A DNA stretch of 64,000 nt, from the NCBI GenBank assembly GCA_018266295.1, contig JAFEAQ010000019.1:310001-374000 (forward strand), written 5' to 3'. The stretch comes from Bdellovibrionales bacterium. GTDB lineage: Bacteria; Bdellovibrionota; Bdellovibrionia; Bdellovibrionales; Bdellovibrionaceae. The notes beneath the pieces are model-generated. The model had not been told where the DNA came from and searched no databases. It saw only the letters and a program-made list of their open reading frames with translations. The stretch's first letter is position 1. Each line of letters starts with the position of its first letter. Both the position numbers and the translations under genes were made by a program. Of this stretch, positions 34,701 to 55,874 are shown piece by piece.

Positions 34701-35286
34701 AAGATCCTGAGCCGACACCGGAGAGTTTGACACTGAGGGTGCTTGTCGGTGTAACAACACCATCAAACTGATCTCTTAAGGCGATATTGTAAGCCGTACA
34801 GACACTTGTTGGCAGAGCCGTGGGCCCAAGAATCGCGAGCTTAAATTGGGAAGCCGTCGGTGAGGGAGATACAGGCATTGAGACAATTATCGCCGGAGAG
34901 CAAACGGGTTTTTTCCCGGGTGCGGTGGCTTTAATATAGATTTTTTCGGCGTAATTATAACTGACAAGAGAAAATGTCGCTGTCCCTGAAGTTGCGGATT
35001 TAGGATTGGTCGGGATGCTGAGACTGCTTGATGCGGCTGTTGTACAGCGCGGATCTGAATACGCAGTCAGAGTGATCGCATCGGATGCAGTGCTTACCAG
35101 GCTGCCGTCAGGTTTTACAACAGAGACACTCGGTTGAATGGTGAAGGCGGCGCCAGTGATGGCGGTCATAGAGGGCATTGTGCTGAAGACGAGTCGTGGT
35201 CCTTGAATCATTGCGCCGAGATTGTAGTAGCCGGCTTTGGCAGAGGAAAACACGAGCAGCAGTGATAAGAAAACCAATGCTCTCAT
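31789..35286 (-). CDS. Exported RCC1-repeat protein with N-terminal Ig-like repeats
   Basis: A 1,165-residue protein with a signal peptide (about residues 1-18, ending AKA). Residues about 25-470 hold Ig/invasin-like beta domains, each with a cysteine pair and a YSDSGC-type motif. Residues about 475-1155 hold 14 RCC1-like repeats, each with the pattern HxCAL about 8 residues before KCWGxNxxGQLGNG. Fourteen blades equal two seven-bladed propellers. The two Cys of each repeat could pin each blade by a disulfide, which suits an extracellular protein. It probably binds a surface or extracellular ligand. The ATG at 35286 lies 2 nt after the stop of the giant fibre gene, so both are made together. 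A T8 run follows the stop codon. Confidence 0.9.
31820..33880 (-). repeat. Array of 14 RCC1-type coding repeats
   Basis: About 150 bp per unit, in frame, each encoding HxCA...CWG..GQLGNG. The units differ enough at DNA level to show old duplications. The array makes the region prone to unequal recombination. Confidence 0.88.
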
Positions 35287-35288
35287 GG

Positions 35289-38200: not shown

Positions 38201-40841
38201 CGATATATTTACCGGCGGCCATCGAAAGATCGCCATTCATCACATCGCCGGCTTTATTGACCGGTGTATAACCCAAAGATGGCTGCACGGAGTTCCATCC
38301 AGAGCCGTTGTTGTATTCGACAACATTTGATGTCGTGTTGTAGCGAATCAGACCCGCCGCATTTGTCGGACGAGCCGCATCCGCACCCGAAGGCAGACGA
38401 ATCGCGTCTGTTTTTGAGCCTAGATCCAAGGTGTAAGCTGGCGCGGTGGTTCCAATACCAACATTTCCACCGCTGGCAATGGTCATTTGAATTGCACCGT
38501 TTGTCTTGAATCCCAAAGCGTAATTATCATTCAGACCAATTGTCGCGGCGGCACCAAATAAATTTCCGCCATTCACATAAGCCGTTGTTCCCGCCGTTGG
38601 TGTGAAACCCAATGCGGATACGACGTCGGCTGAAAGAAGGGCGCTTCCTGAAGTCACGCGGCCTTGAGCATCGGTTGCGACTTTAAAGTAGGTTCCTGCC
38701 GTGCCGGTATTTTTCAAAGACAGAACGCCCGAAGAGTCGATGGTGGCGTCTCCTCCGATGGTCTGAGCTTGCAACCCGTTGGCTGCATTACCGATCCAGA
38801 TTTTACCTTGCGATAAGGCAGGAAGTGAAAGCGAAGGAGTCGGAATCCAGCTCAGAGTTCCTGTCGCATCCACTTGCATAATTTGTGTTCCCGTCGGCGC
38901 CGTCGCAGGAAGTTTCAAAGTATAGCTATTAGAGGCCGTTGAGGCTTGAAGGGTCACGGCGCCGCTATTCACGAGCGCTAGTCCCGCCATTGTCCCGACG
39001 CCGGAGCCATCAAGGCCCAAGATCTTATTCGACTGACCGGTGGTTGTTCTGGTGACAGTGACGGCACCCGCACTGGTGATCGAAGAAATATCATTCGACA
39101 GGGTCATGGCTTCAGCGAAACCAGAAGCATTACCAACCCATACTTGACCCGCACCCAGTGTATTTGCTTGGCGGGATTTTAAGAACAAATAATCCGTATT
39201 GCTGATTAAACCGGCGTTGGCTCCGGCGTTGCCTGCGAGCGGAATATTCAATGTGTGCGTCGTGCCGGTTGAGGTAAACGCAGGATCGGTGCCCGTCGTA
39301 TTGACCGCTAGAGTTTGGGTTGAACCTGTGAGGCCATTGAAGCTCAAGATGCCGCCACCGGAAGTGCCGAGAGTTTTCACCGCAGAGCCGTCATAGTACT
39401 TGATCACGCCGCCGTCATACCAAACTTGGCCCGCCGTTGAGCTTGCTGCCGTCGTGTTTGGTAGAGTTAAATATCCGCCAGGCACCATAACGATGTTGCC
39501 GGCGTTGAGGATGTTGTTGCTATTCATGTTGATGGCACCGGACATCGTGCCGCCACTCAATGGTAAGCGACTATTGAATGAAACATAATCGGTGTTGCTG
39601 ACGAGACCCGCAGTCACCGAAGCCGTGCTCGCCATCGGGATGTTCAATGTGTGTGTGTTTGCTGCAAAAGTGTAGTTCAAAGCGGTGGCAGTGCCAGACG
39701 CAGCCGCCGCGAGGTTTTGAGCCGTGCCGGTTTGGCCATTCAGGCTGGTGATGCCGGTGGCAGCCGGTGCTTGGCAAGCCCAGCCTGTTGCGGTCCAAGT
39801 CAGAACTTCCGACGTCGTTGCACAAGTGAGATTCATGAATTTGCCAGAGGCATCTTTCAAAACCACGCCGGTGGTTGCGGCATTTGTGCCAGTGAAGTCC
39901 ATGTCGTTTGCGATGATCGTGCCGTCAAGGATGTTGGATGACGTCACTTTACCGACGCCGATCGTGACATTCACAGCACCTGTGCCAGAGGCAGTCACGT
40001 CGCCAGTCAGGCTCGTGATGCGATTCAGAAAAGTCGCGTATTCCGTATTGCTGATCAGACCGGCTGTGACGCCTGTGCCTGAAGCCATCGGGATTTTCAG
40101 AGTGTGCGTGCTAGTGGCAGAATTCCAAGCGGGAGCTGTCACCGAGTTGCCGGTATCGACAGCGCCGAAAGTTTGCGTCGTGGTTGTCAGGCCATTGAGT
40201 GAAGTCAGTCCTGTGCCCACGAGGTCATCGGCAATCACGAAAGTGCCGCTTTGGTATTTCAGAATTTTTCCGCTGGTGGCTCCGGTCATGTCGACAGGGA
40301 CGCCTTTGATTTTATCAACAACGACAGCCGTCTGCGTGCCGCTGACGTCACCGCTGAGCGCCGTGGTCAGGCGGTGAGCCTGACCCGCTTCAATCGCGTA
40401 AGGAACGGATTGAATATCCTGGCTGCTGAAAAGTTGTTGAGTAGTGCCGTCGTTGAACGACACGACGATCTTACGAGTTTCGGTTTTGGAAGATGGCGTG
40501 TAAGTACAGCTGCTGCCTGTGATGGTCGAGCCATCGTTCGAGAAAACTTTGTCGAGAGTTCCGCCGCTGGGAACCATGTTTGTTTGTTTCCCAATCACGA
40601 GAGAGAAATACCCGTTGGAGCCGGTCATGCTGACAGGGAATTCTTCGCGATAGAGAGTGCAAGTGCCGGTGGAGTCTTGAACGTCGACTCGGAAAGTGAC
40701 GCTGGCTGATTCGAGAGGTTGATTGCTAGAGTCGGAGATCACGCCATCAACGTTGAAGGTCAACGGCGACGCAAACGCGATGCTTTGAAAAAGCATTGCA
40801 AATGCAAAGACCTGAATGTTCACCCACGTTCTTGATAGCAT
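35289..40841 (-). CDS. Giant tail-fibre-like surface protein (possible MAT-type adhesive fibre)
   Basis: A 1,850-residue exported protein with a signal peptide (ending AFA, about residue 24). An N-terminal beta-domain (about 25-150, [20 protein letters not shown]) is followed by a long array of imperfect blocks: [51 protein letters not shown] and [15 protein letters not shown]. These resemble phage tail-fibre and collar repeats and Bdellovibrio proteins often named cell wall surface anchor. A beta-domain of about 100 residues ([11 protein letters not shown] to the C-terminus) occurs at the end and, in a second version ([14 protein letters not shown]), internally. This layout fits the mosaic adhesive trimeric (MAT) fibres that Bdellovibrio uses to recognise prey. 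That assignment is inferred from architecture. GGAG precedes the ATG. The RCC1 gene follows at 2 nt. Confidence 0.85.
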
Positions 40842-41139: not shown

Positions 41140-42156
41140 GTGAGAGTTTCCGTTGTCATCAACCCGAAAGCAGGGTCCGTAAATCCAGGTCTGATCGAGG
41201 AAAAGATCCGTTCGGCTCTTTTTCGCTGCGATTTGGTTTTCTCGAAGGCAAAGACTCTCGAAGAGATGGACCAGTTCCTGTGCGAAGAGCTCGCTCATAA
41301 AACCGACTTTTTCCTGATTTGTGGTGGCGACGGTACGGTTAACACGTGCCTGCAATACCTTGTTCGCGCGGAAGAGGACCTGACAAAAATTCCACCGATC
41401 GCGGTTGTGCGCTCGGGAACAGCGAATGACTTGGCTCACGAAATCGGCATCAGCCGCCGTATCGATCAAGCGGTTCGTAATATTCTTGAAGGTTCTGTTC
41501 GCAACATCGACATCATTCAAATTTCTTCTGGCGATAAAAAAGCGTTCATGCTGACAAACGGAGGCCTCGGGATTCCTGCGATGACAGCGGATTTGGCCAA
41601 CCAAGTGCGTTTCAGTTTGCAAAAAGTAGCGAACTGCCCGCAAACCGCCGGCTTCTTCAAATCGATTGCTAAAAACAGTTACCAACTGATCAAAAAAATC
41701 GGCCCCGGCGTTTACTCGTTGATGGTGGCTGAAGCTCTACGTACTTGGGATCCAAACGGCTGGGAGCTTGAGTTCGAACTTCCAGGCGATAAGAAATTTG
41801 CAACCAACGCACCGATCGTACTTGTGAACAATCAACCGAGCATCGGCAATAAATTCTTACCGGCACCATTTACTTCCAATACGGATGGCACTGTGAACTT
41901 GCTGTTGGCCGAAGGCCGCCGCGTTCGCGAACATCTTTCTTCATTCTTGCATTTAAGAAACGGAACCGTCAGCCAGTCGGACCGTTTCACTTCCTATGAA
42001 ATCACTGAATTCAAAGTCCGCTCTAAAAATCCGAGCCGTCCGATCACTTTCTTTGGCGATGGCGAGATCCTTTTTAAAGACGTGGCTGAATTATCCGTAA
42101 AATGCCTCCACAAAGGCCTTCCCGTCGTCGTGGGCTCTCCAGCATGGGAAAAGTAA
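41140..42156 (+). CDS. Lipid kinase of the diacylglycerol/sphingosine kinase family
   Basis: A 338-residue protein of the LCB5/DAGK catalytic family. VSVVINPKAG opens the nucleotide domain, FFLICGGDGTVN is the ATP-binding GGDGT motif, and AVVRSGTANDLA follows; the C-terminal beta-sandwich extends from about residue 160. It phosphorylates a lipid hydroxyl (diacylglycerol, ceramide, sphingoid base or similar). GGAAGG at 41125-41130 lies 9 nt before GTG 41140 but directly abuts an in-frame ATG at 41131, so the GTG start is preferred. The end overlaps the next gene by 13 nt. Together with the SDR and reductase genes downstream it suggests a lipid pathway; a ceramide kinase-like role is one option because SDR and LCB5-type genes also occur together in bacterial sphingolipid loci. 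Confidence 0.83.
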   Translation: MRVSVVINPKAGSVNPGLIEEKIRSALFRCDLVFSKAKTLEEMDQFLCEELAHKTDFFLICGGDGTVNTCLQYLVRAEEDLTKIPPIAVVRSGTANDLAHEIGISRRIDQAVRNILEGSVRNIDIIQISSGDKKAFMLTNGGLGIPAMTADLANQVRFSLQKVANCPQTAGFFKSIAKNSYQLIKKIGPGVYSLMVAEALRTWDPNGWELEFELPGDKKFATNAPIVLVNNQPSIGNKFLPAPFTSNTDGTVNLLLAEGRRVREHLSSFLHLRNGTVSQSDRFTSYEITEFKVRSKNPSRPITFFGDGEILFKDVAELSVKCLHKGLPVVVGSPAWEK

Positions 42157-43160
42157 AAATCTTGCTGACAGGTGGAACGGGCTTCCTTGGCAAACAAGTT
42201 TTGCCAAAGCTGCGTGAGTTTGCTGACGTCGATGTGATTTCGCGCTCGGCAAAGGCAGAGGTGCGCGGTGATCTGACTCGCTGGAACGCGGGCTTGGATC
42301 TCGAAGTTCTTAAAAAGAAAAACTACGATATCTTTATTCACCTAGCCGGTTTGTATGATCTTGGCGCCAGTCACATGGATGCTTTCCAGCAGAATGTGGT
42401 GGCAACGGGGACTGCTCTGAAAATCGCGCGGGAATTGCAAATCCCGGTTTTCATGAACGCAAGCTCGGTGGCGGCGGCGGTGAATTCGCCCCTGAAGGTG
42501 GTTCGTCCGTTTGATTTAAATTTTAGCCGCCCTTTTCCGGATCCTTACTCTGAAAGCAAGGCCCTGGGCGAGCAAATGATCCTGAATCAATCTCAGCATT
42601 TCAAACTGTGCATTAATATGCGCTTAGGTGTGCTTGTCGGTGATACGACCGATGGCAAGATCGAACGTATCGATGGACCATATCACGCGCCCCAAGCTCT
42701 GGAGCGAGTTCGTAAATTTATTGAAAGTTTTCCGGCGTCTTTCCCGTTGCCGGGTAAGAAACTGGGCCGTCTTCCACTGGTGCCGGTGGATAAAGCTGCC
42801 GAAGCCGTTGCAGGCTTTGCCAAGTGGTCGCAAGAGACGGAGGCTTTTGGTTATCAAAGTTTTCATGTCACTCCAAAAGAGGGTTTGATCGCTCGGGATT
42901 TATATCTCAAAACTCTGAAGCATCTTTTTATTCCACATCGTGGAATTACATTCGTGAATCGCGTGCCGAAGACCTTGCTGACAAAGGTATCGAAGTGGGC
43001 CGTGAAGTTCCCTGAAGAGCAATTGAATTATCTTTTGATGTTCCCGAAGTATGACTCGGCCTCGACCTGCGATGTACTTGGTGAAGGCTGGTGTCCTGAG
43101 TTTGACAGTTACGAAAAATCTTTCTGGCGAGGTTACAATGAGTACATTTCGAATCGCTGA
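42144..43160 (+). CDS. NAD(P)-dependent epimerase/dehydratase-like SDR
   Basis: A 338-residue extended short-chain dehydrogenase. ILLTGGTGFLG (residues about 5-15) is the NAD(P)-binding motif, HLAGLYDLG follows, and YSESKALGE contains the YxxxK catalytic pair. The domain resembles the N-terminal fatty-acyl-CoA-reductase/male-sterility type and OleD-type enzymes that act on long-chain substrates, as well as ceramide reductase-like SDRs. Its real substrate is unknown. The ATG at 42144 lies inside the lipid-kinase end (13-nt overlap), and its own end overlaps the acyl-ACP-reductase-like gene by 23 nt. This tight coupling suggests an ordered pathway. Confidence 0.85.
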   Translation: MGKVKILLTGGTGFLGKQVLPKLREFADVDVISRSAKAEVRGDLTRWNAGLDLEVLKKKNYDIFIHLAGLYDLGASHMDAFQQNVVATGTALKIARELQIPVFMNASSVAAAVNSPLKVVRPFDLNFSRPFPDPYSESKALGEQMILNQSQHFKLCINMRLGVLVGDTTDGKIERIDGPYHAPQALERVRKFIESFPASFPLPGKKLGRLPLVPVDKAAEAVAGFAKWSQETEAFGYQSFHVTPKEGLIARDLYLKTLKHLFIPHRGITFVNRVPKTLLTKVSKWAVKFPEEQLNYLLMFPKYDSASTCDVLGEGWCPEFDSYEKSFWRGYNEYISNR

Positions 43161-45273
43161 GATTAGTTTCGGACGCTCTCACTGGGATGATTCTTTTAGC
43201 TATGAATATGCGGGACACCGTTTTGAAGTTCAGCGCTTTGGCGTGAATTTCTCGGTGGATCTTGTAAAAAAACTCATTCAAGACCTGCGCACGGATGTCG
43301 ATGCTTTTGCCCTCAGCAGCCTGCCGCCGGTGATTAAACTCGACGAAAAAACCTACGTGCATCGCCAGTATCTTGAGATTATGGGGATGCCTAGCTCTGT
43401 GCCTTTGTGCGACGGTACAGGCCTTCGCGAAATTTCAAATCTGAATTCTATTATTAAGTTGATTGAATCCGGCAAAATCAGCCCGGAAGAAGGCGTCTTC
43501 TTCCCGGCGGCGATGCTCAGCACGGAACTCGAAGAGTTCTTGCGTAAGTCCTATCCTGGAAAAGTCTTCATCGGGGATGCGTACTCGATGCTGGGTTTGC
43601 CCTTGATGATTAAGGCTCCGGTACCGGGTTTGATGGCGTTCTCAAAGCTCGCGCTGAATGTGGCGAATTTTAAAGATCTGCGTAACAACACTCCGCTTGC
43701 GGAAACGCAGATTCAGAAAATGGGACGCTCGGTTTTGGCCTCACAAGTTGAAAAAGTTCAGTATGTGGCCAGCGACTATCCTTTCTTATTGCTCTTTGAT
43801 TCCGCGGTGGAATTTGTTCGCGGAAAGGACCTGATTGTTTGGTCTCATCATCCGGCAGCGGAAAAAGAAGCGCAAAAATACGGTCCGCGCTCTGTGATTA
43901 ATCTCTTCCCGGAAGAGTACAAGATGAGTCCGTATATGAATTACTCTGTCTTGGATGCGACCCTGCGCCTAGTGCACGGTAAGACGGCGCCATTGTCGGT
44001 GCCTGAGTGGGAACAGCTGATTAACCCACGCACAGAGGTCCGTCAGATGACTCGTCAGTACACGGTCAGTCATCGTACGTCGACGCAAGCGAAGATCTCT
44101 CATGGTATTAATCGTGTAAAAAATGTTTTATTGAAGAAAAAAGAACCGGACTTTGCGTTCGTGATTCATGCACTTTCCCATCGCGATTTATTGCGTATTC
44201 CAGGCTTGAATCTGCTTCATAATATGCCTAAGAAATTCAACGATCCTTTTGATCGTATTGTCTCAAAGGCTCCGCCGATTATTTACGGCAATATTCAGCA
44301 TGTGATCAGTAAAGAAACAGGCCGCGAAGTAAATGGTTTGATCTATGGTCTTTTCTCGACGCCAAAGGTTTTGAAGGAAGAAGATCCCGAGGTCACCTAC
44401 GCGAAAATCGAAAAGATCTGCTACGATGCCGCGAACCGTGGAGCAAAGATCATTGGTCTTGGAGCTTACACGAAAGTCGTGGGTGATGCGGGTGTGACGA
44501 TCAATCGCAATTCGCCAATTCCTGTGACCACAGGCAACAGTCTTAGTGCGAGTGCGACGCTGTGGGCTTTAGCTGAAGTCGTTAAAAAAATGAACCTTGT
44601 TAAGAGCGACCCGAATACAGGCTTGGTCGACGGGATGGCCATGGTCATCGGTGCCACGGGTTCTATTGGCAAAGTGTCTGCAAAACTCTTGGCTTTGACG
44701 TTTAAGAAAGTGTGCTTGGTGGCGCCTCGCCAAAACCGTTTGGATGAGTTGGCTGCAGAGATTCGTCAACTAGCGCCACGCTGTGAAATCCTGACGGCGA
44801 CGGATGCGAATGAACTGGCCGGTCAAGCAGATGCGCTGGTGACAGCCACATCGGCGTTTGATCAGAAGATCATTGATGTCATGAGATTAAAACCGGGCTG
44901 TGTGGTTTGTGACTGTTCTCGTCCGCTGGATTTTGATAAAGAAGACGCCAAGAAGCGCCCGGATGTTTTGATTATTGAATCCGGTGAAGTGCTTCTGCCG
45001 GGTCCGGCGCAAATCAACTGTGACTTGGGTCTTCCAGGTAAAGCGGTTTATGCGTGCTTAGCTGAAACGGCGTTACTTGCACTCGAAGGACAGTTTGAGT
45101 CTTTCACCATGGGCCGCGATATTGAGTGGAATAAAGTAAAGGGCATCTACAAAATGGCCCGTAAGCATGGCGTGGAACTCGCTGCTATTCAGGGCCATAT
45201 GGGCATCGTCTCAGATAAAGAGATCGAGCTCACTCGATCTCTTGCACTTTCGCGCCTGCGCGCAAAAAGTTAG
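43138..45273 (+). CDS. Long-chain acyl-ACP reductase-like protein with extra N-terminal domain
   Basis: A 711-residue protein, about twice the usual length. The C-terminal part (about residues 345-700) resembles cyanobacterial acyl-ACP reductase (AAR): the IIGLGAYTKVVGDAGVT and VTTGNSLSASATLWAL segments, a Rossmann motif VIGATGSIGKVSAK (about 503-516) and the catalytic Cys640 in VYACLAETALLALEG, which matches the FACFAE motif of AAR. AAR reduces fatty acyl-ACP or acyl-CoA to fatty aldehyde. No aldehyde deformylating oxygenase is nearby, so alkane production is not supported. Residues 1-345 are not recognised; they contain WSHHPAAEKEAQ and similar motifs and may activate or bind the acyl substrate. 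The ATG at 43138 follows GGCGAGG and overlaps the SDR end by 23 nt. Confidence 0.8.
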   Translation: MSTFRIAEISFGRSHWDDSFSYEYAGHRFEVQRFGVNFSVDLVKKLIQDLRTDVDAFALSSLPPVIKLDEKTYVHRQYLEIMGMPSSVPLCDGTGLREISNLNSIIKLIESGKISPEEGVFFPAAMLSTELEEFLRKSYPGKVFIGDAYSMLGLPLMIKAPVPGLMAFSKLALNVANFKDLRNNTPLAETQIQKMGRSVLASQVEKVQYVASDYPFLLLFDSAVEFVRGKDLIVWSHHPAAEKEAQKYGPRSVINLFPEEYKMSPYMNYSVLDATLRLVHGKTAPLSVPEWEQLINPRTEVRQMTRQYTVSHRTSTQAKISHGINRVKNVLLKKKEPDFAFVIHALSHRDLLRIPGLNLLHNMPKKFNDPFDRIVSKAPPIIYGNIQHVISKETGREVNGLIYGLFSTPKVLKEEDPEVTYAKIEKICYDAANRGAKIIGLGAYTKVVGDAGVTINRNSPIPVTTGNSLSASATLWALAEVVKKMNLVKSDPNTGLVDGMAMVIGATGSIGKVSAKLLALTFKKVCLVAPRQNRLDELAAEIRQLAPRCEILTATDANELAGQADALVTATSAFDQKIIDVMRLKPGCVVCDCSRPLDFDKEDAKKRPDVLIIESGEVLLPGPAQINCDLGLPGKAVYACLAETALLALEGQFESFTMGRDIEWNKVKGIYKMARKHGVELAAIQGHMGIVSDKEIELTRSLALSRLRAKS

Positions 45274-47953: not shown

Positions 47954-50635
47954 TTACTCCAAAATTTTAATGGTACCGGCTTTGCCATCCATACGAATGC
48001 GCATGCCCGTCTTCAAAGTCTTTGTCAGACCGGGAATGCTGACGATGGCAGGAATTGCCATTTCACGGGCGACGATGGCGGAGTGTGAAAGTAAACTTCC
48101 GCGTTCCACAAGCAACCCAGAAATGGCCGGGTAGAGTGGGACCCATCCTGGATCTGTTCTCGCTGTTACGAGAATTTCGCCGTTGAGATCCAGATTATCT
48201 GTTGGATTCAAAATCACTTTCACAGTTCCTTCGAGAACACCCGGGCAGCACGGTAATCCCTTCAGATCGCAGTCTTCGCCTTCAGCAATCGTCATTGAAA
48301 CTTCCTCTTCTTTCACGAAAGGATTGTTCCAGTACACCGCTCCGCGAGTCATAATGCGTGGATCTGTGTCCTCTGTAAACTTCGCGTAATCCGCTTTGCG
48401 CAAATTTACAAAGGCCTGAAGATTGTAAGAGGGCAATGTTCCATTATAGATCCCGAAGACCTCTTCAATGGTGAGCCAGAAAATATCGCGACCGTTTTGA
48501 AGAGCGCCAAGATTCGCCAAATCTTCGCCGATATTTTGGAAGATCGTGCGGGCAATTCCATAAATACGTGTCCGAGCAAAACGGGTGTTTTCACGATTCT
48601 TCACGGCCTTGCGGGCGTGCTTGAGAACCCAGAAGTAAATCTTTTTACGCACTCCCGAGAGATGTTCTTCGACTTTCTTTTCAGAGGCCGCACGCAGAGA
48701 TTTCTCACGAGAATCATCGTGGACTTCCACTTTGCCGGCCTTTAGGTAGTTTTTCAGGCAGACAAATAAGTAAGACGGGTCGGTTAGCAAATCAATTTCT
48801 TCGAGCTTCATCTCACTCATGCAGCGGAAACCGAAACGATCGAGATAGTCGAGAACCATATTATAGAAATTGCGGTGCTTCGATTGATTCAAGGCTTCGA
48901 GGCCATCTTTTGGATCTGTGGTTTCGATGATTCGCTTCAGATCCGCATCTTTGATCGCCTCCGCGGCTAAACGTAGCAAAGCTTTCGTCGGCTCCGCACT
49001 TTCAAGCCCGCCTTCACCCGCAAGCAAGTCATTCTGGATGGTCGAATCCAATTCTGACAACCACGTGGTCGTGAGCTTACGTAAAAGACCGAAGTGAACC
49101 ATGCAAAGGAAATCATTGATGATCGGTGCTTTCCAACGGCCGAGCATATTGCGCTCGACATCCAAGTACACGCGGAGGAGCTGATCTCCGCGCATGCTTG
49201 CCAGCGGCATCGCACGGTACTTGTCGTAGTCGCGGTGGAAGGTCTTTAGGAAGTCATCCACCACCGTTTGGATCGTGAAGTGATACTTAATAAAGTTAAA
49301 GCCCGTCACCATTTTACGGAGTTTGCCCGTGAAAGTGTCCCAAGACGGATGGGGTTTAATACGATTTGCGATTTCATCCGTCAGGCCTTCAGAAACGCCC
49401 ATCATGGTTTCCATGAACTCGCGGTTCTGTTTAAAGCCCGGAAGAACACCGACCAGTTTGTACCAGTTAAAGAGATTGTAATAAACGCGGCCATCGATAC
49501 TTCCCAACATGTAGCTGAGATAAGAATCCATGTCCTTGATGATTTCATTCGGCACGCCCAAAACTTCACAGAACTGAACGTAAACGGCTTTATAGTTTCT
49601 GAGCGCGAAGCTAAAGCTCAACGGTGACGTCAAACCACCGTATGATTCGATGATATTGGAGTTGTCCCAAAGATTCGGATAACCAACCAGGTCTGATTTC
49701 AAGTTTGTCACAGGACGTGTTTGCAGAATATAAAACGTACCGTTTTCAATCGCCCACTCGATATCTTGTGGACGGTGATACTGTTCATGAATCAAATGAC
49801 CGAGCTTATATAAACCACGCAGTTCTTTGTCATTTAAAGACGGTTGAAGGACGAGCTCTGCGGACACAGGATGCAAGCTGCAGTGGCCAGAGCTTGATTT
49901 CTTCATCATCTCTTTCTTTTCGATGATCTCAGATTTCACAAGATCACCGGTGTGCTGGTGCAACCAGTAAGAATCCGCATCCAGAGCGCCTGAGACAAGG
50001 CCTTCACCAACGCCATACACAGAGGACACTACATAGTTATCAAGCTTGCCGGTCACAGGATCGCAGGTAAACATCACACCGGATTTTTCCGGATCAATCA
50101 TGCGTTGAAGAACCACTGAAACCGAAATCTTGTGCGGATCGATCTTGTTTTCTTTACGGTAAATAAGACCACGCTCAGAGAACGCTGAAGCCCAGCACTT
50201 TTTAATGTACCTTAAAATGTCTTCTTTGCCATTGACGTACAAGAAACTAGAGAGCTGGCCGGCAAAGGAGTGCGAAAGACCGTCTTCGTCCGCCGCCGAA
50301 GAGCGCACAGAAAAGATTTTATCAGCTCCCAGCATTTGCAACGCCTGATCGATGCTCGAAGACAGCATGGCGGTTGTATTGCTATCGGCGAAGAGTTTTT
50401 CAATTGCGGCTTCGGCCTCTTTGGCAGTGATATGGCCGTGAACGAACTTTTCTACCAACTGGTAAAGATCTTGATGGATGCCGGCACTCTTCACAAAATC
50501 TTGGAAGTAGCGACGGCCAAAAACCACCCACTCAGGCACGGGGATCCCGGCTTTCGTCATCAAGTACAGGTTAAAGCCCTTACCGCCGGATTCATTTTTG
50601 GCAAAGAAGTGCGTGGAGTTTTTCGTTACAAGCAT
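47954..50635 (-). CDS. PEP-synthase / rifampicin-phosphotransferase-like dikinase
   Basis: An 893-residue protein. The N-terminal ATP-binding domain of the PPDK_N type (about 1-310) shows SVRSSAADEDGLSHSFAGQL, SGVMFTCDPVTG and IEWAIENGTFYILQTRPVT. A middle domain (about 320-790) is not one I recognise. The C-terminal swivelling phosphohistidine domain (about 800-893) carries His851 in GSLLSHSAIVAREM. The PEP/pyruvate TIM barrel of true PEP synthase is missing, so the order of ATP domain, substrate domain and His domain is that of rifampicin phosphotransferase. It likely transfers the ATP beta-phosphate via His to a small molecule, or has been adapted to a biosynthetic step. The ATG lies 1 nt after the UbiA stop and is preceded by GGGAG. 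Drug resistance is possible but the context favours biosynthesis. Confidence 0.82.
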   Translation of the reverse strand: MLVTKNSTHFFAKNESGGKGFNLYLMTKAGIPVPEWVVFGRRYFQDFVKSAGIHQDLYQLVEKFVHGHITAKEAEAAIEKLFADSNTTAMLSSSIDQALQMLGADKIFSVRSSAADEDGLSHSFAGQLSSFLYVNGKEDILRYIKKCWASAFSERGLIYRKENKIDPHKISVSVVLQRMIDPEKSGVMFTCDPVTGKLDNYVVSSVYGVGEGLVSGALDADSYWLHQHTGDLVKSEIIEKKEMMKKSSSGHCSLHPVSAELVLQPSLNDKELRGLYKLGHLIHEQYHRPQDIEWAIENGTFYILQTRPVTNLKSDLVGYPNLWDNSNIIESYGGLTSPLSFSFALRNYKAVYVQFCEVLGVPNEIIKDMDSYLSYMLGSIDGRVYYNLFNWYKLVGVLPGFKQNREFMETMMGVSEGLTDEIANRIKPHPSWDTFTGKLRKMVTGFNFIKYHFTIQTVVDDFLKTFHRDYDKYRAMPLASMRGDQLLRVYLDVERNMLGRWKAPIINDFLCMVHFGLLRKLTTTWLSELDSTIQNDLLAGEGGLESAEPTKALLRLAAEAIKDADLKRIIETTDPKDGLEALNQSKHRNFYNMVLDYLDRFGFRCMSEMKLEEIDLLTDPSYLFVCLKNYLKAGKVEVHDDSREKSLRAASEKKVEEHLSGVRKKIYFWVLKHARKAVKNRENTRFARTRIYGIARTIFQNIGEDLANLGALQNGRDIFWLTIEEVFGIYNGTLPSYNLQAFVNLRKADYAKFTEDTDPRIMTRGAVYWNNPFVKEEEVSMTIAEGEDCDLKGLPCCPGVLEGTVKVILNPTDNLDLNGEILVTARTDPGWVPLYPAISGLLVERGSLLSHSAIVAREMAIPAIVSIPGLTKTLKTGMRIRMDGKAGTIKILE

Positions 50636-50636
50636 C

Positions 50637-51512
50637 TTAAGCTCCCATCACAAAACAGATTAGAACGTAATGTAAAAGCAGATAAACCCCGGTGCCGTCA
50701 CGGAAGATTTTAGCCATCTTCAATTGGGGATTCAGCGCATAGCCAACGCTCATTAAAGTATAAAGGACAGCCCCGGCAATCAGCCAATAAAAGCGCGAGT
50801 GATTGCTGAGCGCGACCCAAGAAAGGATAATGCCGATCAGAACCTGCGACCACGACAGCAACCAAGCACCTTTAGGATTAAAGATATTGCTATAGCTAGG
50901 AACATGCGGGCGTTCCTCGTTCGGTGCGAAGGTTTTACGGGCAAATTCAAACAAATTAAAGAAACACCAGTTCATCAAGAAGAAACAAACATCTGCGAAT
51001 TGAATTTTTTGAGGATTGAAGTTCACGATCGCGGTGGCTGCGGAAACTCCTAAAAGAACGCTGACGAAGGTGTGAGTCACGGCATAAGTGGTCAAGTGAG
51101 GTCTCAGGATATCGCCGATAAAGAACTCTTCGTACATCAGCAAACTGTAACCAATGGCCATCACATGGATTAAGAACGGCCAGAAACCCAAGAAGGCTGC
51201 AAGGACCACTTCAAAAAGGATCATCCAGAAGAGGCCCTTTTTAACTTGCGGCACAGTCAGCACTCCGCGGGCCAGGGGGCGGGTGGGGTTTACTTTCAGA
51301 TCCACTTCGTAGTCTTTGATTTCATCAAAGCAGCGCATACGAAAGAAAAAGCTCAGCATCAACATCAGCACGCAAATAAAACGGCCGGTGTCGAAGGTGT
51401 AGCTCGCGGCCTTCGACAAGTACAGGCCGTTTGCCAGAGTAAAAATGAAAATCATCGGAAGGTAACTTCCGGGACTAAAACGCTCTTTGATGAGAATCAG
51501 CCAGTTACGCAA
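50637..51512 (-). CDS. UbiA-family prenyltransferase
   Basis: A 291-residue integral membrane protein with about eight hydrophobic segments. The first Asp-rich motif, FDEIKDYEVDLKVNPTRPLARG (residues about 62-83, Asp63, Asp67 and Asp71), is that of UbiA-type prenyltransferases; the second, usually DxxxD-like, is weak (near residues 190-200). These enzymes transfer a prenyl chain to an aromatic, phosphoribosyl or glycerol-type acceptor. The acceptor here is unknown. It overlaps the hydrolase-ligase gene by 8 nt, and the dikinase gene follows after 1 nt, so all are coupled. Confidence 0.87.
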   Translation of the reverse strand: MRNWLILIKERFSPGSYLPMIFIFTLANGLYLSKAASYTFDTGRFICVLMLMLSFFFRMRCFDEIKDYEVDLKVNPTRPLARGVLTVPQVKKGLFWMILFEVVLAAFLGFWPFLIHVMAIGYSLLMYEEFFIGDILRPHLTTYAVTHTFVSVLLGVSAATAIVNFNPQKIQFADVCFFLMNWCFFNLFEFARKTFAPNEERPHVPSYSNIFNPKGAWLLSWSQVLIGIILSWVALSNHSRFYWLIAGAVLYTLMSVGYALNPQLKMAKIFRDGTGVYLLLHYVLICFVMGA

Positions 51513-53916
51513 TGATCGCTCCCGGGTCTTTCAGTTGATCACGCAAAACTTTGTATTCCACTTTCGAGTGATGGCGAGGATCCATTGGAACCGCTTTGAC
51601 GAACTTGATTTGATCTACCGGGATTTTGTTCTTGGCAAAAACACGGTTGATTTCTTTTTTTGCCGCTTCAAAATCAAAAGTCGCTTTGTCGATGTCAGCT
51701 TTCAGCTCCACACATGCATAAGTCGCTTGGCCGAGGGATTTGTCATCCATACCAAGGAACGCGCAACGATAAGCAAACGGCATACGCTTCAGCAAGACCT
51801 CGGCGCGAACCGGGAAGTAGTACTTACCACCACGCTCAATCGCGTTGTTCGTGCGGCCGACGATCCAAAGATCTTTCTTAGAGTCGATATAAGCCAAATC
51901 ACCGGTTCTATGCCAAACGCGGTTTTGACCGTCCATAATTTTAGTGGTCTTAAACGCGTCGGTATTATTGTAATAATCACGGCAAACGTGGTCCCCCGTA
52001 CAGATGAATTCACCCACTTCGCCATTGGGAACTTCGATTTGTGACCAAGAAGAGCCTTTGAGCTCAACCGGACCGTCTTTAATACGGATAAATTTGTAAT
52101 CGATATCTTCGCTGATATGACCTACATTCACGCCTTCCTCGATGATCTCAGGATCCGCTGAAGGATTCTCTTTCAGCATGTCGCGGCCTTCGATGTGAGC
52201 CATCGGTTCTGCCTCTGTCGAACCGTACAGGATCCAAAGATCTGTTTGGGGTGCGATCTCATAGAAGTTCTTAACGTCATCTTTAGAAATCGGTGCGCCG
52301 CCTGTAACAACTCGGCGGAGCTTATCAAGTTTAATGCCGTTTTCTTTGCAGTAACGAGCTAAGCCCACAAGCATGCTCGGTGAAAGTGTCGTGCAATTGA
52401 TGCCTTCATTGATAATCTGACAAGCCAAGATCGCCGAGTCGCGCTCGGAAGGGGCCGCCAAATCAACCGCTGGCAAGATCGTCGTCACACCGCTTGCCAA
52501 GTTGTTCAAACTGAAGATCGGAAATGCCGGCATGTCTTTGTCTTTCTCTGTGTAAGGAATGACGTGAGAAAGCGCGTGATGCTGAGCCGACAAGAAACGA
52601 TGAGTGCGGTTGGCGCCTTTTGGCTTCCCTGTAGAACCAGTTGTGAAAGTAATCAAAGCTGTGAACTCACTTTCAACCGAGGCAATCGGCGAAGCCGTTG
52701 GTTTCAATAATTCAGGGAAGCGGTGAGTGCACTTGTCACCCGGGCCGTAGAGAACACGGATGGGCATTGATTTAAATTCTGGAACTTGATCGACGAGCGC
52801 AAAAGCCTGCTGGAAACTAATCATCGCTTTCGGGCCCACGCATTCGGCAGAAGCTCCCAAGTGGTGGCTGCGCGCCCAAGAATCCAAGAACACGGCAATC
52901 GCGCCGATACGCTGAACCGCGAACATCGCCGTGTACATATCAAGGCTCATCGGCAAGAAGATGATCACGCGATCACCTTTTTGAATACCGATATCCAGCA
53001 GTCCTTGGGCAAAAGAATTAATTCTGGCGGCAAAGTTTTTGTAAGAGATCTCATCGTGTTTAATCGGAGTTTTCGGTGAACCGTCCCATTGGGCCATGGA
53101 TTCACGGTTGGCCCAGCGAAGAGCGACGCGGTCCGGGAACTCCCGCAAATGCTTTTCCATGTAGTTAATGACGTTGTTACGTTCATCACTTCCAGGGTAG
53201 TAACCGATTTTTTGATTGCTAGTGCTCACAGTGGCTCCTTCAGCGGAAATTTCAGAAATAATCTTCTCAGGGTGGCTCCAGAGGAGTCCGTGGCCCGTCG
53301 CAGGAATGGTTTTCATCTTCGCCTGTGGGTATTTACCCAGCACGGCAGTTTGGATCTCGTTACTAGAGATCTTATCAAGCTCTCCGTACAAAACGGTGAG
53401 TGGAACATCGGTGATGTCCGCTTCACGCCATGGGTTGTCTTGCATTTTGATTTTGTTGACGACCGTCTTTTGCCAAACCGTCCAGTCTTGAAAGTGATTG
53501 TGCAAAGTCTGAAAGTAAGGAAGGTCTTTCAGCGTATTTGGGTGAATCAGGTCACTGACAAAAGCGTCTTTAGCTTTTTTGTGGTTGGATTTAATCAAAG
53601 TATCGCCAAGGCCTGGCATTTTCAGCAAAGTCGTCGCGAGTCCCGAAAGTGTGCGCTCGGGTTTTACATAGGGAGCCACCAAAATTACTTTTTCGATGTG
53701 GTTTTTAAGCTCTTTTAGATTTTTCAAAATCAAATAAGAGCCCCACGAGTGGGCCACGATGATTTTCTTGTCACTTCCGCGAGTGACTTCTTGTTTCCAG
53801 CCATCGCTGTAAGCGTCGACCGCTTTGAATTGGAATTGTGAACCGATTTTGTCGCGTAAAATGTTCCAGTCGGCCGGAGAACCGGGGTTTCCGTGCAGGG
53901 CAATAATGGTTTTCAT
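51505..53916 (-). CDS. Alpha/beta-hydrolase fused to OleC-like adenylating enzyme
   Basis: An 803-residue two-domain protein. Residues 1-235 are an alpha/beta-hydrolase (oxyanion HGNPGS; nucleophile Ser57 in VAHSWGSY; His in ATGHGLLW). Residues about 245-803 are an acyl-adenylate-forming enzyme with the P-loop-like TFTTGSTGKPKG (about 420), YGSTEAEP, HRTGDLAYID, and a C-terminal MDPRHHSKVEYK segment. The ligase most resembles OleC, the beta-lactone synthetase of long-chain olefin synthesis (motifs FPIFSLNNLASGVTT, VVTGGAPISKDDV, PxDxRHxxK). OleBC fusions are known, but OleB uses an Asp nucleophile, while this hydrolase has Ser, so a different chemistry is likely. OleA is absent. The start overlaps the formyltransferase stop (ATGA). 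Confidence 0.83.
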   Translation of the reverse strand: MKTIIALHGNPGSPADWNILRDKIGSQFQFKAVDAYSDGWKQEVTRGSDKKIIVAHSWGSYLILKNLKELKNHIEKVILVAPYVKPERTLSGLATTLLKMPGLGDTLIKSNHKKAKDAFVSDLIHPNTLKDLPYFQTLHNHFQDWTVWQKTVVNKIKMQDNPWREADITDVPLTVLYGELDKISSNEIQTAVLGKYPQAKMKTIPATGHGLLWSHPEKIISEISAEGATVSTSNQKIGYYPGSDERNNVINYMEKHLREFPDRVALRWANRESMAQWDGSPKTPIKHDEISYKNFAARINSFAQGLLDIGIQKGDRVIIFLPMSLDMYTAMFAVQRIGAIAVFLDSWARSHHLGASAECVGPKAMISFQQAFALVDQVPEFKSMPIRVLYGPGDKCTHRFPELLKPTASPIASVESEFTALITFTTGSTGKPKGANRTHRFLSAQHHALSHVIPYTEKDKDMPAFPIFSLNNLASGVTTILPAVDLAAPSERDSAILACQIINEGINCTTLSPSMLVGLARYCKENGIKLDKLRRVVTGGAPISKDDVKNFYEIAPQTDLWILYGSTEAEPMAHIEGRDMLKENPSADPEIIEEGVNVGHISEDIDYKFIRIKDGPVELKGSSWSQIEVPNGEVGEFICTGDHVCRDYYNNTDAFKTTKIMDGQNRVWHRTGDLAYIDSKKDLWIVGRTNNAIERGGKYYFPVRAEVLLKRMPFAYRCAFLGMDDKSLGQATYACVELKADIDKATFDFEAAKKEINRVFAKNKIPVDQIKFVKAVPMDPRHHSKVEYKVLRDQLKDPGAIIA

Positions 53917-54659
53917 ATTTTCGTCCCTTTGAATTTAAGCTTAAAGAAATCCAAGATCGTAGGGTTTGAGCGGTAAATGGTTTTCTCTGTTTTATTATTT
54001 TCCATTCCAGTGACGGCTCCGGCCTGGGCGATATCCGCGAGAACCTCTTTCGCGGCAAGAACCTCTTGCTTTGAGCCATGATAGATCGACTCAAGATAGT
54101 CGGTCTTTGCGGTTTTCACTTCGACCACCTTCAGAATCGCTCCGGCATCGAGCTTTGAAGTCATTTGGTGAATCGAAAAGCCGGAAGGTGTTTTTTCCAA
54201 GTGCGCCCAGAAGTCGCACATGAGTCCTCGTTGGTCTGGAAGCAGCCCATGGTGGATATTGATACAACCCAAGCGGGGAGTCGCCAAAAGTTTTTTCTTA
54301 AAGAACGTGCGAGTGCGCGCATTCAGAATCAAATCAATATTTTCGCGACGAAGAATCTCGAGAGCCTCTTCAGAGTTGAGATCATCAACGATAAAGAATT
54401 TTTTAGAATGACCCGTGTAGGCTGATTCTTTATGAGAAAGAAGATCGTTGAAGTAGTTTTTCAAAAGCTGCAGGCCCATGCGTGGGCCGGCGCCGGTCAG
54501 CACCAAGGCCAAACCTTGAAGAACCATTTTCCAATCGCGGTTGTCGATGATCATGCAGCCGACAATATGCGGAGCCTCAGCAAGTCCGCAGACAAGCTGA
54601 TTGTAATTCTCCGGTACAAAAGTCACTCGCGACGTGACAAGAAGTGCACGCAAACTCAT
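53913..54659 (-). CDS. Formyltransferase-fold enzyme
   Basis: A 248-residue protein with the formyltransferase hydrolase-like fold of Fmt, PurN and sugar N-formyltransferases. The catalytic segment NIHHGLLPDQRGLMCD has the Asn and His of the N-H-D triad, and SKLDAGAIL has the Asp. It is shorter than Fmt and lacks the tRNA-binding OB domain, so it is not a second Fmt. It may formylate an amine from 10-formyl-tetrahydrofolate; the acceptor is unknown and could be an amino-lipid made by the neighbouring genes (inference). First gene of the minus-strand operon; the ATG is preceded by GGAGAAAG. Confidence 0.8.
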   Translation of the reverse strand: MSLRALLVTSRVTFVPENYNQLVCGLAEAPHIVGCMIIDNRDWKMVLQGLALVLTGAGPRMGLQLLKNYFNDLLSHKESAYTGHSKKFFIVDDLNSEEALEILRRENIDLILNARTRTFFKKKLLATPRLGCINIHHGLLPDQRGLMCDFWAHLEKTPSGFSIHQMTSKLDAGAILKVVEVKTAKTDYLESIYHGSKQEVLAAKEVLADIAQAGAVTGMENNKTEKTIYRSNPTILDFFKLKFKGTKI

Positions 54660-54776
54660 GAATCTGGTCTTTCTCCGAGATGCTTTTTCAAAATTCTCTC
54701 GTTAGAGTATTATAGGCAAGATCGTGGACTAGATCACTATGAAATTGCCTTATCTGACCTTAGAAAGGACACCCTT

Positions 54777-55874
54777 GTGGCTCAAGAGTATTTTTCGGAT
54801 TTAAACTATACGTTGGCCAATGAAGACACCCGTGTTGAGTTCGACTTATTGCCAGAAAAAGTGTCCCGAGTTTTCAGTATCGCGGGATCGGGTGCGCGTT
54901 GCATGCCTCTCATTGCCAAACATCCGAAAGAACTCGACGTTGTTGATATGTCGGTGAGTCAGAATTATCTCTGTGAATTGCGTTTTGAGGCGATGAAAGT
55001 CCTGAGTTACGAAGAGTATCTCTTCCTGATGGGCTATCGTGGGGCGCTTCAGTCGAGTCCACAAGAAGGTGATGATCGTAAAGCGGTTTTCGAAAAAGTT
55101 CCGCTCAGCCCCGAGGCGAAAAAATACTGGAGTGAACGCAGTGCCGGCTGGGCCCCGCGCGGATTCATTTTGCTAGGACGTTGGGAATCTCACTTCCAAA
55201 AGTTGGGGTTTCTTTTCCGTGAAGTTCTTAAATGCGATTTCTCAAAAGTTTTTGAAGCTCAGTCTCTCGCGGAACAAGTTGAGTTGTATGAAAAGTACTG
55301 GCCTCACGTCCGTTGGAAGAGTTTCATTCGCGTGGCGGCCAGTGAATATGTATTTAATAAATTCCTCTACAAGGGCCACTTCAGCGGCCGCAGTGAGGCA
55401 AAAACCGAAGCGCGTGCTCCCTGGGAGTTTGTCACTCAGGAATTCGACCGTATTTTCCGGACGCAACTCGTTCGTAAAAACTATTTCATGCAGATTCTTT
55501 TCCTCGGAAAAATCGCCTACGAAGAGGGTCTTCCCCTCGAGGCACATCAGCATGTGTTTGAGCGAGTCAAAACGGCGCCGACAAAAGTGAATTACTTGCT
55601 CGGAAATCTGCTCGAGCATTTGCCGAAAAAGAACTACGATTTTATCTCGCTGTCGGACACGATTTCTTACCTTCCGCAAGAAGACGCCAATCAGATTTTA
55701 CAGCGTCTGCACGCGGAAACGAAATCCGGATCACAGATGGTGATTCGTTCGTTCATGCGCGCGCCAACGGCTCCGGATTTGAAGGGCTGGCAGGACTGCC
55801 GAGATAAAGATTTATGGGCTCAGAAAATCGATGGAACAGGTGTCTATCAATTTCACATTTTCAAAAAGTCTTAG
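54777..55874 (+). CDS. DUF3419 / BtaA-like 3-amino-3-carboxypropyl transferase
   Basis: A 365-residue protein starting at GTG 54777, preceded by AAAGGA at 54764-54769. YFSDLNYTLANEDTRVEFDLL at the N-terminus, with LNY and NED, is characteristic of DUF3419. FSIAGSGA (residues about 33-40) and LDVVDMS (about 53-59) form the SAM-binding part. The family includes BtaA, which moves the aminocarboxypropyl group of S-adenosylmethionine to diacylglycerol in betaine-lipid synthesis; no BtaB-type methyltransferase is next to it. It diverges from the formyltransferase gene, suggesting a shared regulator. Longer upstream frames run antisense to the formyltransferase and are not preferred. Confidence 0.8.
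   Translation: MAQEYFSDLNYTLANEDTRVEFDLLPEKVSRVFSIAGSGARCMPLIAKHPKELDVVDMSVSQNYLCELRFEAMKVLSYEEYLFLMGYRGALQSSPQEGDDRKAVFEKVPLSPEAKKYWSERSAGWAPRGFILLGRWESHFQKLGFLFREVLKCDFSKVFEAQSLAEQVELYEKYWPHVRWKSFIRVAASEYVFNKFLYKGHFSGRSEAKTEARAPWEFVTQEFDRIFRTQLVRKNYFMQILFLGKIAYEEGLPLEAHQHVFERVKTAPTKVNYLLGNLLEHLPKKNYDFISLSDTISYLPQEDANQILQRLHAETKSGSQMVIRSFMRAPTAPDLKGWQDCRDKDLWAQKIDGTGVYQFHIFKKS

What the first reader, a model, noticed from the sequence alone, without database searches (positions are those of the whole stretch)
41140..45273. Overlapping operon of lipid kinase, SDR and acyl-ACP reductase-like enzyme with unknown extra domain
The three genes overlap by 13 and 23 nt. The last encodes an AAR-like domain with Cys640 in the expected place, plus about 345 N-terminal residues that I cannot assign. 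Acyl-ACP reductases are well known from cyanobacterial alkane synthesis, but no deformylating oxygenase is here. A fatty aldehyde could instead feed an ether lipid, plasmalogen-like lipid or sphingoid product, with the SDR and lipid kinase acting on it.
Basis: partly seen in the sequence, partly recalled or inferred. Interest (0 to 1): 0.72.

Follow-up and report, generated by a model that had tools for sequence, protein, structure and literature searches.

The report
Fatty-aldehyde enzyme in predator lipid locus
Predatory Bdellovibrio-type bacteria carry a three-gene operon that probably turns fatty acids into aldehydes or alcohols; it is inherited together with other lipid-making genes, which points to a membrane lipid nobody has described, whose structure is still unknown.

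Summary
Lipid kinase, SDR and reductase genes overlap by 13 and 23 nt. The third protein (711 aa) carries an acyl-ACP-reductase (AAR)-type domain at residues ~335-708, with the dinucleotide motif GATGSIG and catalytic Cys640 invariant in 36 aligned sequences. Its model matches solved AAR and the carmabin TAD domain at Z 34-35. It is closer in sequence to PigE than to cyanobacterial AAR but belongs to neither curated family. The "unassignable" N-terminus is best read as a second, degenerate AAR-fold domain: AAR is its best solved match (Z 10.7) and the one local profile match falls in register. It lacks the Cys and the glycine motif. No deformylating oxygenase was found in the genome. The larger result is context: across Bdellovibrionota the trio is co-inherited with a BtaA-like DUF3419 transferase, a UbiA-like protein, a PEP-synthase-like dikinase and, usually, a hydrolase-ligase, all present elsewhere in this window. 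Two genomes show them as one operon. Most likely a fatty acyl thioester is reduced to aldehyde, then alcohol, for an unusual lipid with a homoserine-type head group. The chemistry after the aldehyde is inference. Plasmalogen or sphingoid products are neither supported nor excluded.

The parts
41140..42156 (+). YegS/DgkB-type lipid kinase (338 aa), GGDGT and DGE motifs present
   Evidence: Pfam DAGK_cat 1.9e-20 and YegS_C 6.9e-8; TIGR00147 77.6 bits, under its cut-off; motifs in 22-23 of 23 family members
42144..43160 (+). Extended SDR (338 aa), TGGTGFLG and YSESK motifs; matches the N-terminal half (3-352) of the 657-aa model PRK07201; likely fatty aldehyde/alcohol step (inference)
   Evidence: Pfam NAD_binding_4 2.3e-19; NF005539 1.2e-33
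43138..45273 (+). Two-domain acyl-thioester reductase (711 aa)
43138..44073 (+). Residues 1-312: AAR-fold domain without the catalytic Cys or GxxGxxG motif; invariant D147 and P258, near-invariant D55, H75, K230
   Evidence: model pLDDT 84.7 / pTM 0.86; best solved match AAR 6jzq Z 10.7, 237 residues, 5.0 A; motif loss; stand-alone relatives of ~318 aa in L056-L060
44140..45261 (+). Residues 335-708: catalytic AAR/PigE-type domain; GATGSIG 505-511
45055..45057 (+). Codon of Cys640, equivalent to Cys294 of S. elongatus AAR
   Evidence: alignment to 6jzq; invariant in 36 sequences
47954..50635 (-). PEP-synthase-like dikinase (893 aa): PPDK_N and PEP-utiliser phosphohistidine domains found, no PEP-binding barrel domain reported by Pfam; acceptor unknown
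   Evidence: co-occurrence
50637..51512 (-). UbiA-superfamily membrane protein (291 aa)
   Evidence: Pfam UbiA 38.4 bits, cut-off 34.2; co-occurrence
51505..53916 (-). Alpha/beta-hydrolase fused to AMP-forming acyl ligase (803 aa), OleB/OleC-like; split into two genes in some relatives
54432..55874 (+). DUF3419 (BtaA-like 3-amino-3-carboxypropyl transferase) protein; homologues begin near 54768
   Evidence: PF11899 7.6e-58, profile 4-385 of 385; co-occurrence

Best explanation
The third gene encodes an NAD(P)H-dependent acyl-thioester reductase of the AAR/PigE kind. A fatty acyl group moves from ACP or CoA onto Cys640 and is reduced to a fatty aldehyde. The N-terminal 312 residues are a degenerate, non-catalytic domain of the same fold, probably a docking, dimer-like or regulatory partner. 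The overlapping SDR most likely reduces the aldehyde to the fatty alcohol (or acts on the next intermediate), and the lipid kinase phosphorylates a lipid hydroxyl. Together with the co-inherited DUF3419/BtaA-like transferase, UbiA-like protein, ligase-hydrolase and PEP-synthase-like dikinase they form one lipid pathway, whose product probably carries a homoserine-type head group and an aldehyde- or alcohol-derived chain. Shown: genes, motifs, predicted folds, conservation, co-inheritance. Inferred: every reaction, and the product.
For: NCBIfam PigE 7e-47 and AAR 4.5e-16 over the C-terminal half; alignment to 4ppm and 6jzq through Cys640 and GATGSIG; both invariant in 36 sequences; fold Z 34-35 to AAR and carmabin TAD. 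PigE and TamH domains of this kind have been shown or argued to reduce thioesters to aldehydes (PMC8341465, PMC9594044). N-domain: best solved match AAR; parallel order of strands and helices; profile match in register, above 100 of 100 shuffles. SDR matches the N-terminal half of PRK07201. Co-occurrence in 40 carriers vs 40 non-carriers: SDR 40 vs 0, DUF3419 39 vs 3, UbiA 39 vs 3, dikinase 40 vs 5. Operon order LIPK-SDR-AAR-DUF3419-formyltransferase-like-hydrolase-ligase-UbiA-dikinase in L051 and L064. Pairwise distances of LIPK, SDR, AAR and DUF3419 correlate at r 0.87-0.96, 0 of 500 permutations as high.
Against: The domain scores far under both curated equivalog cut-offs (59 vs 449.7; 160 vs 850), so substrate and product are not fixed by homology. 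No pathway known to me uses this gene set. The lipid kinase and SDR families are broad. I found no report of ether or homoserine lipids from Bdellovibrio in the held papers, which are an open-access subset. Distance correlations and co-occurrence partly reflect shared ancestry.
Confidence: 0.6

Rival explanations
1. The operon feeds a secreted secondary metabolite (prodiginine/tambjamine-like logic: AAR-type reductase plus PigC/RedH-like dikinase) rather than a membrane lipid.
For: Closest curated family of the reductase is PigE, and the dikinase also matches RedH/PigC models after PEP-synthase models; separate PigE-like proteins beside dikinases exist in the same phylum (L061-L063).
Against: No aminotransferase domain is fused here and no pyrrole genes were seen; lipid kinase, UbiA-like protein and BtaA-like transferase are membrane-lipid types; the set is widespread and its genes share one history across many families, unlike most secondary-metabolite clusters.
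Confidence: 0.2
2. The product is an ether, vinyl-ether (plasmalogen-like) or sphingoid lipid.
For: A fatty aldehyde or alcohol is a classical precursor of ether lipids (general knowledge); DUF3419/BtaA forms an ether bond to a glycerolipid (PMC3972451).
Against: No CarF-type desaturase hit, though that search had no working control; no alkyl-DHAP-synthase-like or serine-palmitoyltransferase-like gene was seen in the conserved set, but these were not searched genome-wide.
Confidence: 0.25
3. The reductase is a free-standing source of fatty aldehyde or alcohol (for example wax ester), with the lipid kinase and the wider gene set unrelated neighbours.
For: AAR plus SDR would together equal a fatty acyl reductase; all three families are broad.
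Against: Strict co-inheritance of SDR (40 vs 0) and of genes that are unlinked on the chromosome in several genomes.
Confidence: 0.1
4. The N-terminal domain is a separate active enzyme or nucleotide-binding sensor of another family that only shares a Rossmann-like arrangement.
For: Invariant D147 sits just after the second strand of the Rossmann-like part; invariant P258, near-invariant H75 and K230; malic enzymes score nearly as well (Z 8.9) as carmabin TAD (9.1) and better than AAR by Foldseek; stand-alone copies exist.
Against: AAR tops the second aligner's list across the whole domain, and the only sequence match is in register with the C-terminal domain.
Confidence: 0.25

Closest known systems
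Cyanobacterial acyl-ACP reductase (AAR, TIGR04058; PDB 6jzq)
   Same: Fold, GATGxIG motif, catalytic Cys (C294 = C640)
   Different: 59 bits against a cut-off of 449.7; fused to a second AAR-fold domain; no deformylating oxygenase found in the genome
PigE / TamH thioester-reductase domains (NF053554; PMC8341465, PMC9594044)
   Same: Best curated sequence match (PigE); same predicted Cys mechanism
   Different: No fused aminotransferase; 160 bits against a cut-off of 850; different gene neighbourhood; long separating branch
Carmabin TAD domain (PDB 9e4s)
   Same: Best fold match of the C-terminal domain (Z 35.2)
   Different: Taken from a carmabin biosynthesis protein numbered near 1900-2300; only 17% identity
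Fatty acyl reductases of the PRK07201 kind (from memory: Marinobacter FAR, Rv3391)
   Same: The SDR resembles their N-terminal half; the AAR-SDR pair could do the same overall acyl-to-alcohol reduction
   Different: Acyl reduction would be done by an unrelated AAR-type domain
BtaA (betaine-lipid synthesis, DUF3419)
   Same: DUF3419 across the whole profile
   Different: No BtaB identified (not sought); sits with fatty-aldehyde, UbiA-like and dikinase genes
OleB/OleC olefin pathway
   Same: Hydrolase and AMP-ligase pair resembles OleB/OleC
   Different: Far under the OleC cut-offs; no OleA seen in the conserved set

Membership tests
AAR/PigE-type acyl-thioester reductase (C-terminal domain) | Catalytic cysteine at the position of AAR Cys294 | tested here: met
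   Cys640 invariant in 36 of 36
AAR/PigE-type acyl-thioester reductase (C-terminal domain) | GxxGxxG dinucleotide-binding motif | tested here: met
   GATGSIG 505-511, all three glycines invariant
AAR/PigE-type acyl-thioester reductase (C-terminal domain) | AAR fold | tested here: met
   predicted model, Z 34.3 / 2.8 A / 325 residues to 6jzy
AAR/PigE-type acyl-thioester reductase (C-terminal domain) | Reduction of acyl thioester to aldehyde | not testable with these tools
   needs an enzyme assay
Cyanobacterial long-chain AAR (TIGR04058 equivalog) | Score above the curated cut-off | tested here: not met
   59.1 vs 449.7 bits
Cyanobacterial alkane pathway | Aldehyde deformylating oxygenase in the genome | tested here: not met
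   PF11266: no hit in own genome, control Synechococcus elongatus rang
PigE (NF053554 equivalog) | Fused aminotransferase and score above cut-off | tested here: not met
   160 vs 850 bits, match to profile 2-345 of 837 only
AAR fold, N-terminal domain | AAR fold over the whole domain | tested here: inconclusive
   AAR ranks first, Z 10.7, residues 4-297 to 1-335; malic enzyme Z 8.9; Foldseek TM only about 0.4 for AAR
AAR fold, N-terminal domain | Catalytic Cys and GxxGxxG | tested here: not met
   equivalent positions 269-271 hold no Cys in any of 36 sequences; 122, 124 and 126 hold no Gly
YegS/DgkB lipid kinase | DAGK_cat domain and GGDGT motif | tested here: met
   but TIGR00147 77.6 under 118.65
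Extended SDR | TGxxGxxG and YxxxK | tested here: met
   window protein has both; YxxxK in 25 of 26 family members
BtaA (betaine lipid synthesis) | DUF3419 domain, full length | tested here: met
   196.9 bits vs cut-off 28.2
BtaA (betaine lipid synthesis) | Partner methyltransferase BtaB | not tested
   no BtaB query was run
OleC beta-lactone synthetase | Score above curated cut-off | tested here: not met
   219 vs 900 and 204 vs 850 bits
PEP synthase | PEP/pyruvate-binding barrel besides ATP-binding and phosphohistidine domains | tested here: inconclusive
   Pfam lists only PPDK_N and PEP-utilizers at E <= 0.01, while NCBIfam PRK06241.2-2 scores above its cut-off (1282 vs 883); best solved relatives 5fbs/5hv1
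CarF/TMEM189 plasmalogen route | PF10520 desaturase | tested here: inconclusive
   no hit, but no control genome rang either

The most novel reading that the evidence does not exclude
A phylum-wide pathway to an undescribed lipid class in predatory bacteria: a fatty aldehyde or alcohol made by a fused AAR is joined to a homoserine-bearing glycerolipid through an ATP-driven (dikinase) and UbiA-catalysed step, giving an ether or vinyl-ether lipid by a route unlike any known.
Probability: 0.2. Interest if true: 0.85.

Novelty: new variant of a known kind. Interest (0 to 1): 0.6.

Why it matters
It turns an odd operon into a testable claim: a co-inherited lipid gene set, present in B. bacteriovorus and many other Bdellovibrionota and missing as a unit in some close relatives, whose product is unknown. 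If right, it would give these predators' membranes a new biosynthetic route, and add a reductase built from one active and one inactive copy of the same fold.

Tried and rejected
Alkane synthesis: no deformylating oxygenase in the genome. Sequence search for the N-domain in the PDB: nothing at E <= 5 even with a 41-row profile. Whole-domain homology of N and C halves by profile alone: only a 32-column match, weak by probability (3.7-11%), so it is used only together with fold and register. Fold search of the whole 711-aa model: filled by the C-terminal domain, so the N-domain was folded alone. Foldseek of the N-domain: best hits are malic enzymes at E 4e-4 with AAR at 1.2e-3 and low TM-scores, so the claim rests on the second aligner and on register. 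Literature: no held paper joins Bdellovibrio with acyl-ACP reductase or betaine lipid; of the four with plasmalogen the one opened had nothing bearing on this. A search for further fusions around the Desulfobacteraceae relative failed because L033 has no genome handle. Placement of AAR and PigE in the tree is unsure: very long branches.

Full report
CHECK OF THE OBSERVATION. The three ORFs lie where stated: kinase 41140-42156, SDR 42144-43160, reductase 43138-45273, overlapping by 13 and 23 nt with these starts. Longer starts exist in all three frames, but homologues of the third gene align from the shorter start. The trio keeps its order and strand in about twenty other loci of the phylum. 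The window belongs to a 4.2-Mb genome of the phylum Bdellovibrionota; a named relative is Bdellovibrio bacteriovorus strain kdesi (L032, 72% identity over the reductase).

THE REDUCTASE DOMAIN. Residues 339-691 match PigE (7e-47) and 375-680 match cyanobacterial acyl-ACP reductase (4.5e-16), both far under the curated equivalog cut-offs. The alignments to solved PigE and AAR entries run through GATGSIG and through Cys640, the equivalent of AAR Cys294. The three glycines and the Cys are invariant in 36 aligned sequences, down to 31% identity to the window protein. The predicted structure of this half matches the carmabin TAD domain (Z 35.2) and AAR (Z 34.3, 2.8 A over 325 residues). In PigE such a domain reduces a thioester to an aldehyde before transamination, and the same is argued for TamH (PMC8341465, PMC9594044). 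I therefore take acyl-thioester to aldehyde as the likely reaction; it is not shown here. In a tree all fusions form one clade on a long branch apart from AAR and PigE (support 99/97), though the reference branches are so long that their own placement is unsure.

THE N-TERMINAL DOMAIN. Pfam and a profile search of the PDB find nothing. Folded alone with an alignment of 41 sequences it gives a confident model (pLDDT 84.7, pTM 0.86). Its best solved match is AAR (6jzq, Z 10.7, 237 residues, 5.0 A, running from residue 4 to 297 against 1 to 335), above carmabin TAD (9.1) and malic enzyme (8.9). Foldseek alone is less clear: malic enzymes first, AAR third, low TM-scores. The order of strands and helices parallels the C-terminal half. 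A profile comparison of the two halves finds one 32-column match, VPLCDG at 88-93 against PIPVTTG at 460-466, in the same register; its score exceeded all of 100 column shuffles (26.2 vs at most 24.3) although its formal probability is low, and the N-domain profile finds that same C-terminal segment again in several relatives. In that register the positions of the catalytic Cys and of the glycine loop hold other residues. D147 and P258 are invariant; D55, H75 and K230 nearly so. So it is most likely a degenerate copy without the reductase chemistry that has kept some other, conserved role. Stand-alone ~318-aa relatives occur in other genomes (L056-L060), and one lineage (L049) has the reductase without the N-domain.

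THE PARTNERS. The kinase is a YegS/DgkB-type lipid kinase. The SDR is an extended SDR that matches positions 3-352 of PRK07201, a 657-aa family. From general knowledge this family includes Marinobacter-type fatty acyl reductases; the related mycobacterial FCR1 has its acyl-CoA reductase activity assigned to the C-terminal part (PMC3522743). Reduction of the aldehyde to the alcohol is therefore my preferred role for the SDR, as inference.

THE WIDER LOCUS. Elsewhere in this window lie a PEP-synthase-like dikinase (47954-50635), a UbiA-like protein (50637-51512), a hydrolase-ligase (51505-53916) and a DUF3419/BtaA-like protein (54432-55874). In L051 and L064 relatives of all of these follow the trio on one strand, with a formyltransferase-like gene added. 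Co-occurrence was tested in 80 genomes that I chose as 40 carriers and 40 non-carriers of the reductase fusion: SDR 40 vs 0, DUF3419 39 vs 3, UbiA 39 vs 3, dikinase 40 vs 5, three of the five lying near PigE-like genes. The close form of the ligase (E < 1e-100) is in 28 vs 0, and some other carriers have a diverged ligase next to UbiA and the dikinase. Five genomes of one genus (g3, which holds the close Bdellovibrio relatives: G065, G118, G130, G142, G148) lack all four families together. In several genomes the genes sit on different contigs or far apart and both are still present (for example G008, G181, G086). One exception, G015, has DUF3419, UbiA and dikinase but no reductase hit. Pairwise distances of the genes correlate (r 0.59-0.96, at most 1 of 500 permutations as high), as expected under joint vertical inheritance; this and the co-occurrence partly reflect shared ancestry.

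MECHANISM. [quoted passage not shown] SDR to alcohol; kinase acts on a lipid hydroxyl; DUF3419 adds a 3-amino-3-carboxypropyl (homoserine) group from SAM as BtaA does (BtaA activity: PMC3972451); ligase, UbiA-like protein and dikinase assemble or join the parts. Only the genes, motifs, predicted folds and co-inheritance are shown. The dikinase acceptor and the UbiA substrate are unknown. Some related loci also carry LolCDE-like transporter genes and a LolA-like protein beside the set, which would fit delivery of a lipid to the outer membrane, but this was not followed.

COMPARISON. It works like AAR/PigE/TamH reductases; it is not a member of the curated AAR or PigE families, nor part of the alkane pathway. 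The DUF3419 protein meets the family test, but betaine-lipid synthesis was not shown, and BtaB was not sought. OleC membership is not met; PEP synthase and plasmalogen desaturase tests are inconclusive (see table).

NOVELTY AND VERDICT. The reductase is a new variant (active plus inactive copy of one fold) of a known kind. The pathway appears undescribed in the papers searched, which are only an open-access subset.

Noticed in passing
window 35289-40841 (-): 1850-aa repetitive protein with repeats like [23 protein letters not shown] and no convincing Pfam domain; may be a predator surface fibre protein (from memory, unverified).
   Followed up: no
window 31789-35307 (-): 1172-aa protein made largely of RCC1 repeats.
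   Followed up: no
L056-L060: Stand-alone ~318-aa versions of the N-terminal AAR-fold domain, highly conserved among themselves, in genomes that also carry the fusion.
   Followed up: partly
L061, L062, L063: Separate PigE-like proteins (AAR-type domain at the C-terminal end of 858-912 aa) near PEP-synthase-like dikinases in the same phylum: possible prodiginine/tambjamine-type clusters.
   Followed up: no
L033 7995-10382: Full fusion in a Desulfobacteraceae MAG, without the other pathway genes in 17 kb; several neighbours are housekeeping genes.
   Followed up: partly
L032, L036, L038, L031, L039, L042, L043: LolCDE-like ABC transporter genes, and in several of these loci a LolA-like protein (PF17131), recur beside the trio.
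   Followed up: no
L055 5466-7663: Cytochrome P450 and lactonase-like metallo-beta-lactamase-fold genes between the reductase and a ligase-like gene in one lineage.
   Followed up: no
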